Shown here one piece after another: positions 7,601 to 8,485 of a stretch of 64,000 nt of DNA; the first letter of the stretch is position 1, and each line of letters begins with the position of its first letter. Under the pieces are notes generated by a model that saw nothing but the letters and a program-made list of their open reading frames with translations, did not search any database and was not told the DNA's origin. The DNA comes from Salvelinus alpinus. Taxonomy: Eukaryota; Chordata; Actinopteri; Salmoniformes; Salmonidae. The stretch spans positions 3,360,652 through 3,424,651 of the forward strand of contig NC_092089.1 in the NCBI RefSeq assembly GCF_045679555.1, read 5' to 3'. Made by a program: the position numbers and the translations under genes.

Positions 7601-8485
7601 AAGACTGGTCTCCCCCTGTGTTTGCCCACAGAGCATATCCGACTACAAACTATAGACTGTATGAGGATGTACACCGTGCTTCTACACCTGCATTACTAGC
7701 TGTTTGGGGTTTTAGGCTGGGTGTCTGTACAGCACTTCGAGATATTAGCTGATGTACGAAGGGCTATATAAAATAAAATTGAATTGAATGTAATATTGTA
7801 TAGTTCTTATCTCTGTTCTATTGTCCTGGTTGTATGTAACCTACCTGAGGTCAGTGATCTCTGTTCTATTGTCCTGGTTGTATGTAACCTACCTGAGGTC
7901 AGTGATCTCTGTTCTATTGTCCTGGTTGTATGTAACCTACCTGAGGTCAGTGATCTCTGTTCTATTGTCCTGGTTGTATGTAACCTACCTGAGGTCAGTG
8001 ATCTCTGTTCTATTGTCCTGGTTGTATGTAACCTACCTGAGGTCAGTGATCTCTGTTCTATTGTCCTGGTTGTATGTAACCTACCTGAGGTCAGTGATCT
8101 CTGTTCTATTGTCCTGGTTGTATGTAACCTACCTGAGGTCAGTGATCTCTGTTCTATTGTCCTGGTTGTATGTAACCTACCTGAGGTCAGTGATCTCTGT
8201 TCTATTGTCCTGGTTGTATGTAACCTACCTGAGGTCAGTGATCTCTGTTCTATTGTCCTGGTTGTATGTAACCTACCTGAGGTCAGTGATCTCTGTGCAC
8301 TCAGCATAGGGTCCCAGGCCAGGCTTAAGGAAACACTGTATGAACCCTCCGATGTCTTTCTGTACATACATATCCTCCTCATAGCAGTCACAGTGACGCC
8401 TGATCACCCCCTCTGCTCCGTCACACACACACAAGAGCAGCAGCACACTCACACTGGGCCTCCACACCCAAAACACAAATGTCAT
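1601..8485 (-). CDS. Leucine-rich-repeat receptor, probably Toll-like; 5' part, possibly broken
   Basis: Six minus-strand exons are visible: 8277-8485, 5055-5168, 3852-4028, 3532-3699, 3133-3438 and 1601-1861; the gene runs off the left edge. Exon 1 starts at the ATG of 8485 (MTFVFWVW), has a hydrophobic signal peptide (about residues 8-20) and a Cys-rich N-cap (HCDCYEED). Exons 3 to 6 have lengths divisible by three and join in phase 0. Across the joins they give regular LRRs, such as [16 protein letters not shown] followed by [15 protein letters not shown]. No transmembrane segment or TIR domain is visible because the 3' end is missing. The LRR style suggests a fish Toll-like receptor, possibly of the TLR11-type group, but another LRR receptor cannot be excluded. 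Exon 2 is one base short of keeping frame (stop at 5117-5119), so this copy may be a pseudogene or the sequence has an error. Introns hold LINE, MITE, SINE and Tc1 insertions. Confidence 0.62.
1985..2645 (+). mobile_element. LINE 3' end (L2-like) with TTTGA tail
   Basis: This is a typical salmonid LINE 3' fragment. It has a short ORF remnant, then an AT-rich untranslated part with an internally repeated segment (about 2200-2330 and 2325-2430), and ends in ATAAAATTTGATTTGA. It is 5' truncated and lies in an intron of the LRR gene. Confidence 0.7.
2757..3003. mobile_element. Short MITE with CCCAGTGGG-type termini
   Basis: The segment is bounded by CCCACTGGGCACAGA on the left and its imperfect inverse TTTTGCCCAGTGGG on the right. 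It is about 247 bp, AT-rich and has no ORF. Many fish repeats share these ends. It lies in an intron of the LRR gene. Confidence 0.65.
4183..4295 (+). mobile_element. tRNA-derived SINE
   Basis: An A-box-like TAGCTCAGTAGGTAGAGCAT (4190-4209) is followed by a degraded B-box (GGATTCCATTCC) and the fish SINE core ending CTGTAAGTCGCTTT. The tRNA-like part is degenerate, so this is a retroposon and not a tRNA gene. Confidence 0.7.
4296..4935 (-). mobile_element. LINE fragment (L2-like), C-terminal reverse-transcriptase region
   Basis: The minus-strand translation at about 4722-4880 includes [20 protein letters not shown] and [13 protein letters not shown], the C-terminal region common to fish L2-like ORF2 proteins. 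The rest (4296-4720) is the matching 3' UTR in reverse. The copy is truncated and has stops. Confidence 0.7.
5225..5935. mobile_element. Tc1-type terminal fragment interrupted by a second repeat
   Basis: The stretch from CAGTACCAGTCTAAAGTTTG (about 5230) to 5315 is a common salmonid Tc1 terminus. Its continuation reappears at about 5785-5935, ending in the segment that reads toward GCCTTGATGACAG. Between them (about 5316-5784) lies an unrelated GC-richer repeat with no real ORF. A matching end fragment occurs at 61662-61770. No transposase is present. Confidence 0.6.
5946..7551 (+). mobile_element. Complete Tc1/mariner element with terminal inverted repeats
   Basis: The element is bounded by CAGTGGGGAGAACAAGTATT and its exact inverse, with inverted repeats extending some 170-200 bp. 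It is flanked by the TA duplication at 5944-5945 and 7552-7553. At 1606 bp it has the canonical Tc1 length. It carries one transposase gene (6314-7335), broken by a single frameshift. It sits in intron 1 of the LRR gene. Confidence 0.95.
6314..7335 (+). pseudogene. Tc1 transposase with one frameshift
   Basis: This encodes a DDE transposase that would bind the element's ends and catalyse cut-and-paste transposition. It starts at ATG 6314 ([11 protein letters not shown]). The paired helix-turn-helix DNA-binding part comes first, with a GRPR-like basic motif. All three catalytic acidic residues are present: SDETK at about 6770, QHDNDTKH at about 7037 and NPIENLW at about 7140. After KIELFGL the frame shifts near 6797-6800. 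Reading then stops at 6868 in the first frame, while the rest continues in the other frame to the TAA at 7333. The total is one base short of 341 codons, so a single deletion explains the break. Confidence 0.93.
7552..7600. repeat. CATA/CACA microsatellite
   Basis: ACATACAT tetranucleotide repeats directly follow the right end of the Tc1 element. Confidence 0.85.
7670..7795 (+). mobile_element. Short retroposon 3' end (fish LINE/SINE-like)
   Basis: The sequence includes GCTGTTTGGGGTTTTAGGCT and ends in AAATAAAATTGAATTGAA, a common salmonid retroposon tail. There is no ORF. It abuts the 48-bp array that follows. Confidence 0.55.
7810..8289. repeat. 48-bp minisatellite, 10 near-identical copies, containing a splice donor
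   Basis: Ten head-to-tail copies of a 48-bp unit run from about 7810 to 8289. On the minus strand each unit includes CACTGACCTCAG followed by GTAGGT, which is the exon 1 / intron 1 junction of the LRR receptor. The first unit overlaps the authentic exon end at 8277. The copies look essentially identical, so the array is young or well homogenised. Long ORFs through it on both strands follow only from the unit being a multiple of three. Confidence 0.95.

What the first reader, a model, noticed from the sequence alone, without database searches (positions are those of the whole stretch)
7810..8290. A tandem array multiplies a splice donor
The 48-bp unit contains the last bases of LRR-receptor exon 1 and its donor (CTCAG then GTAGGT on the minus strand). 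The gene therefore has the real donor at 8277/8276 followed by nine identical donors at 48-bp spacing. Use of a downstream donor would add 16 codons per unit; the gene frame meets TAG immediately after the first donor, so misuse would truncate the protein. The array could act as a decoy-donor cluster or be kept tolerable by preference for the first donor.
Basis: partly seen in the sequence, partly recalled or inferred. Interest (0 to 1): 0.7.

Follow-up and report, generated by a model that had tools for sequence, protein, structure and literature searches.

The report
Minisatellite repeating a fish splice donor
A young 48-base repeat has copied the splice signal at the end of an exon of a fish immune-receptor gene nine extra times, an arrangement already described for two human genes, in a gene copy that here looks partly broken.

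Summary
Window 7809-8296 (minus strand) is a perfect 48-bp minisatellite of 10 copies plus 8 bases. Each copy carries CTCAG|GTAGGT: one donor at the exon end (8277/8276) and nine identical ones downstream, every 48 nt. Neighbours (a PBXIP1-like ORF, SHC1 exons) fit the published trout tlr19 block, so the LRR gene is most likely tlr19. The array probably grew from an 8-bp direct repeat, ACAGAGAT, one copy in the exon, one in the intron. Likeliest behaviour: the first donor is used almost always, the next unit rarely. Human minigenes with two identical strong donors did the former (PMC9225289); the human ABCA7 VNTR, of the same anatomy, leaks one unit at about 2% (PMC5954066). Downstream donors add no peptide: TAG follows at codon 71. 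This copy may be a pseudogene or misassembled. A decoy role has no direct support here. New member of a known kind; no RNA or relatives could be examined.

The parts
7809..8296 (-). 48-bp minisatellite, 10 perfect copies plus 8 bp, spanning the exon/intron boundary
8277..8485 (-). coding part of exon 1 (ATG at 8485; signal-peptide-like start and Cys-rich LRR N-cap, judged by eye, no Pfam match); its last 20 nt (8296-8277) are the first part of the array
   Evidence: a possible acceptor AG just before 8499 would make this an internal exon of 223 nt
8271..8281 (-). donor 1, CTCAG|GTAGGT, junction 8277/8276
7839..8233 (-). donors 2-10, identical, last exon bases 8229, 8181, 8133, 8085, 8037, 7989, 7941, 7893, 7845
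8289..8296 (-). ACAGAGAT, exonic copy of the presumed seed repeat
7809..7816 (-). ACAGAGAT, intronic copy of the presumed seed repeat, end of the array
5055..5168 (-). exon 2 region: after the acceptor before 5168 it reads [10 protein letters not shown] in the frame of exon 1, while the LRR ([21 protein letters not shown]) lies in another frame
   Evidence: weak LRR_8 match (E 0.0047, below cut-off)
3852..4066 (-). proposed LRR exon with one TGA near its start in the LRR frame
   Evidence: no Pfam match
3532..3699 (-). LRR exon, open, 168 nt
   Evidence: (LRR_8 9.5e-15)
3133..3438 (-). proposed LRR-like exon, open, 306 nt
   Evidence: no Pfam match and no meaningful PDB relative
1601..1861 (-). 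proposed LRR-like exon, open, 261 nt; its donor is weak (1.11 bits)
   Evidence: no Pfam match, no significant PDB relative
5944..7553 (+). Tc1-like transposon in intron 1 (inverted ends, DDE_3 ORF)

Best explanation
A young minisatellite grew by slippage or unequal exchange between two 8-bp ACAGAGAT repeats 48 bp apart, one inside the end of the coding exon and one in intron 1 of a fish tlr19 gene. Because the unit spans the junction, each added copy leaves the exon and donor 1 intact and places a further full-strength donor in the intron. Shown by sequence: perfect copies, ten identical donors, in-frame TAG after donor 1, the 8-bp repeat at both ends. Inferred: the mode of growth; donor 1 is used nearly always and the next unit rarely, giving mRNAs with a stop at codon 71 that would be degraded. 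The array is therefore close to neutral passenger DNA, the more so if this gene copy is already broken.
For: Array, copy identity and donors. The 8-bp overhang beyond ten copies. Stop at codon 71 for donors 2-10 and at codon 87 for donor 1. Intron 1 is about 3.1 kb (8276 to 5169). In five human exon-defined minigenes with two identical strong donors the upstream one was chosen exclusively, and among genome-wide pairs of near-equal strength with long flanking introns the upstream donor is preferred (PMC9225289, Results read in part). ABCA7 exon 18: donor in a 25-bp VNTR; retention of one unit, out of frame, about 2 +/- 1% of transcripts, subject to nonsense-mediated decay (PMC5954066, passages and one section). 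IFI6: two downstream repeat units used as donors (PMC4526556, passages). Gene identity by synteny.
Against: No RNA data and no second individual or species were available; the genome search was unreachable seven times. The exon may be the first exon, where the cross-exon rule does not strictly apply. Without a filter for equal strength, PMC9225289 finds a majority of events preferring the downstream donor in all four intron classes, and the published minigenes had two donors of CAG/guaagu, not ten of CAG/GTAGGT. Ten perfect copies could be miscounted by the assembly.
Confidence: 0.72

Rival explanations
1. The donors act as a functional decoy or dosage rheostat: array length sets the share of tlr19 transcripts that stop at codon 71 and are degraded.
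For: Every downstream donor is identical to the first and each leads to TAG at codon 71. In ABCA7 exon 19 skipping rises strongly with VNTR length (PMC5954066), so donor-bearing arrays can change splicing by length.
Against: The frame is apparently broken even with donor 1. Copies are perfect, which fits recent growth more than old maintenance. Minisatellites are common in this window.
Confidence: 0.05
2. The AG|GT at each unit boundary works as a dual-specific or recursive site: the spliceosome excises whole units from the array and restores the same junction, so even wrong donor choice is repaired.
For: 45 of 45 donor-to-later-AG joins restore an intact CTCAG|GTAGGT junction, with introns of 48-432 nt. 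[quoted passage not shown]
Against: Poor acceptor context: 8 of 17 pyrimidines at -20..-4 against 14 of 17 for the acceptor at 5168, although two other acceptors proposed for this gene have only 9 and 7 of 17. Four other AGs of the unit lie before the boundary AG, besides the one inside the donor.
Confidence: 0.06
3. The tlr19 copy is a decaying pseudogene, perhaps a whole-genome-duplication duplicate, so the array has no splicing consequence that matters. This refines the main reading more than it competes with it.
For: 0 of 57 acceptors in frame with the next LRR exon give an open frame; stop at codon 87; TGA near the start of the exon at 4066. Brown trout is reported to have a single tlr19 (PMC7312180), so a second copy elsewhere could be a remnant.
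Against: Three downstream exons are open and in phase over 735 nt. Small assembly errors, or an unseen exon in intron 1, could explain the break; a later AG could avoid the TGA. The TIR exon lies outside the window.
Confidence: 0.5
4. The array length is an assembly artefact (few real copies).
For: Perfect identity over 488 bp; no reads available.
Against: Clean partial end and intact flanks. Seven of nine other arrays measured in this window have diverged copies, so the assembly resolved long arrays there.
Confidence: 0.08

Closest known systems
ABCA7 exon 18 VNTR, human (PMC5954066, passages and one section read)
   Same: Tandem repeat that begins at the exon's own donor, so the units carry a donor; retention of one unit gives a premature stop (about 2%)
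   Different: 25-bp units that vary slightly, about 12 to 427 copies, repeat starts at the GT; here 48-bp perfect units include 20 exonic bases and an in-frame TAG
IFI6 / G1P3 (6-16) minisatellite, human (Turri et al. 1995: title only, through reference lists seen; paper not held)
   Same: Minisatellite supplying several splice donors of one exon; two downstream repeats are used, three mRNAs (PMC4526556, passage)
   Different: Interferon-induced gene, not a TLR; unit length and frame consequences not seen in any call
UBC / VCX3A dual-specific splice sites in tandem repeats (PMC10809524, abstract, passages and one section)
   Same: AG|GT repeated at each unit of a tandem array
   Different: There the sites lie in coding repeats and are used as both 5' and 3' sites; here the acceptor context is poor and use is untested
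Internal tandem repeats at exon-intron boundaries of human duplicated genes (PMC2812944, passages)
   Same: Tandem repeats across exon-intron boundaries change splicing
   Different: A survey of human segmental duplications; formation of new introns, not extra donors of one exon

Membership tests
Donor-bearing minisatellite (ABCA7/IFI6 kind) | Tandem repeat with units of tens of bases | tested here: met
   48 bp x 10.2
Donor-bearing minisatellite (ABCA7/IFI6 kind) | Each unit carries the exon's own donor | tested here: met
   10 of 10 full units
Donor-bearing minisatellite (ABCA7/IFI6 kind) | Downstream donors used in RNA | not testable with these tools
   no RNA-seq
Donor-bearing minisatellite (ABCA7/IFI6 kind) | Copy number varies between individuals | not testable with these tools
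   one sequence only; the genome search unreachable
Dual-specific splice-site array (UBC kind) | AG|GT at each unit boundary | tested here: met
Dual-specific splice-site array (UBC kind) | Usable acceptor context | tested here: inconclusive
   8 of 17 pyrimidines and four earlier AGs, but two of the gene's proposed acceptors have 9 and 7 of 17
Dual-specific splice-site array (UBC kind) | Same site used as 5' and 3' site in RNA | not testable with these tools
   no RNA-seq
tlr19 (TLR11 subfamily) | Leucine-rich repeats | tested here: met
   LRR_8 9.5e-15 on one of six pieces, 0.0047 (below cut-off) on a second, nothing on four
tlr19 (TLR11 subfamily) | TLR19-PBXIP1B-LENEP-SHC1 neighbourhood | tested here: met
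   SHC1: five pieces placed, two of them searched and matched to PDB SHC chains; PBXIP1-like ORF recognised by recall only (no Pfam hit); published block; LENEP not looked for
tlr19 (TLR11 subfamily) | TIR domain | not testable with these tools
   would lie before window base 1

The most novel reading that the evidence does not exclude
The array is a self-repairing splice ratchet: any internal join between its identical AG|GT boundaries regenerates the correct junction, so the repeat can lengthen freely without changing the mRNA, while what escapes repair could set the receptor's dose.
Probability: 0.04. Interest if true: 0.7.

Novelty: new member of a known kind. Interest (0 to 1): 0.33.

Why it matters
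It is a clean natural test of how the spliceosome chooses among ten identical donors that share the same 20 bases before and 28 bases after the junction, differing mainly in position. It also shows how a minisatellite born across a junction can lengthen an intron without touching the exon. If the gene copy is a pseudogene, it matters mainly as a warning about gene models in minisatellite-rich fish genomes.

Tried and rejected
Peptide additions of 16 codons per unit: rejected, TAG at codon 71. RNA structure hiding downstream donors: the array folds somewhat better than shuffles (z -2.55, 1 of 100 shuffles as good), but the stretch around donors 1 and 2 does not (z -0.60, 53 of 200 shuffles at least as good); not used. 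PDB searches of single LRR-like pieces gave nothing significant; the joined pieces hit many LRR proteins (268 sequences up to E 0.001, 60 shown), which does not name the family. A paper search for TLR, VNTR, splice donor and fish gave 3 papers, none about such a case judging by titles and abstract starts. Searches for splice-donor minisatellites: (lists cut to 15, 20 and 12 in the last three). Searches gave nothing that I used; one search found no paper. Papers opened for passages and not used: PMC8207781 (carp tlr19; no exon structure), PMC12958757, PMC3045353. (PMC4425437) failed on a term format and was not repeated.

Full report
The array. TRF finds a 48-bp repeat at 7809-8296, 10.2 copies, 100% matches. 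On the minus strand ten CTCAG|GTAGGT junctions lie 48 nt apart, the first at 8277/8276 and the last at 7845/7844; there are none on the plus strand. Lag-48 identity over the array is 1.0, with an exact run of 440 bases. Of nine other arrays measured that way, two shorter ones (46155-46310 and 62624-62681) are also perfect and seven are diverged. The array is thus ten whole units and 8 more bases, ACAGAGAT, which begin the array inside the exon (8296-8289) and end it in the intron (7816-7809). The single-copy ancestor then had an 8-bp direct repeat at 48-bp spacing. That fits birth by slippage between short direct repeats (inference; the general model is recalled).

Is it more than chance? The donor scores 10.06 bits of a possible 12.63 with a recalled human matrix; 28 of 8340 GT sites in the window on both strands score that high, ten of them here. 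Among 19 tandem arrays chosen by hand from the 90 TRF rows, this is the only one with any donor of 8 bits or more. It is the strongest of the six donors I proposed for this gene (all).

The gene. LRR evidence is one clear piece of six (LRR_8 9.5e-15) and a weak one (0.0047, below cut-off); four pieces have no Pfam match and are called LRR-like by eye. Upstream of the gene lie a PBXIP1-like ORF (15058-16869, recognised by recall; no Pfam hit) and SHC1 exons (five pieces between 49745 and 42931; two searched, best PDB SHC chains at E 5.7e-17 and 2.9e-13). [quoted passage not shown] The gene is therefore most likely tlr19. The TIR exon would lie outside the window.

Is the gene intact? Exon 1 (ATG 8485 to 8277) ends in phase 2. 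Joined to the acceptor before 5168, donor 1 gives ...[20 protein letters not shown] and a stop at codon 87; donors 2-10 stop at codon 71. I took the AGs from 8276 to the DSFSHIPLL codons: 57 put that LRR in frame with exon 1, and 0 of 57 give an open frame. The exon at 4066 has a TGA near its start in the LRR frame, though a later AG could avoid it. The exons at 3699, 3438 and 1861 are open, each a multiple of three, 735 nt joined with no stop. So the 5' part is broken or misassembled and the rest that lies in the window looks sound. An unseen exon in intron 1, which holds a Tc1-like transposon, cannot be excluded.

How it most likely works. Because the unit spans the junction, adding units leaves the exon and donor 1 unchanged and lengthens the intron. 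Which donor wins depends on the mode of recognition. In five human exon-defined minigenes with two identical strong donors the upstream one was chosen exclusively. Genome-wide, pairs of near-equal strength with long flanking introns prefer the upstream donor, pairs with short introns the downstream one; but without the strength filter a majority of events prefers the downstream donor in all four classes, and short exons are preferred over long ones (PMC9225289, first part of Results). Intron 1 here is about 3.1 kb. An acceptor-like AG just before 8499 (12 of 17 pyrimidines) would make the exon internal, 223 nt with donor 1 and up to 655 nt with donor 10. So donor 1 should dominate, with a little leakage. 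In ABCA7, where a 25-bp VNTR starts at the exon 18 donor, retention of one unit was found at about 2 +/- 1%, gives a premature stop, and did not change with VNTR size, whereas skipping of the next exon did rise with size (PMC5954066). In IFI6 two downstream units are used as donors (PMC4526556, passage, citing Turri et al. 1995, which is not held).

A further property. 45 of 45 donor-to-later-AG joins inside the array restore the same junction, as in dual-specific splice-site arrays (PMC10809524). The AG has a poor pyrimidine context (8 of 17), four other AGs of the unit lie before it, and a 48-nt intron is very short (recalled). Two of the gene's own proposed acceptors have 9 and 7 of 17, so context alone does not exclude it. 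I keep this as the boldest reading at low probability.

Verdict. Observation confirmed; interpretation partly supported; a new member of a known kind, with little reason to expect a function.

Noticed in passing
43398-44052: A 63-bp array (43398-44044) begins about 8 bases into the intron after a SHC1 exon (44103 to about 44052); a second array beside a donor in the same window, but the donor seems to lie outside the array.
   Followed up: partly
42817-43056: A long (AC)n run (42817-42931) lies directly at the 3' end of a SHC1 exon piece, so the donor may sit in or beside a GT microsatellite.
   Followed up: no
15720-16304: In-frame coding minisatellite inside the PBXIP1-like ORF 15058-16869 (EWKGEKNGKEDKNLRKGGWNEGRD repeats); the ORF stays open across it.
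   Followed up: no
5944-7553: Tc1-like transposon with inverted ends and a DDE_3 ORF in intron 1 of the LRR gene; another DDE_3 ORF at 20328-20822.
   Followed up: partly
8499: Acceptor-like AG 14 nt before the ATG; the exon called exon 1 may be internal, after a 5' UTR exon.
   Followed up: partly
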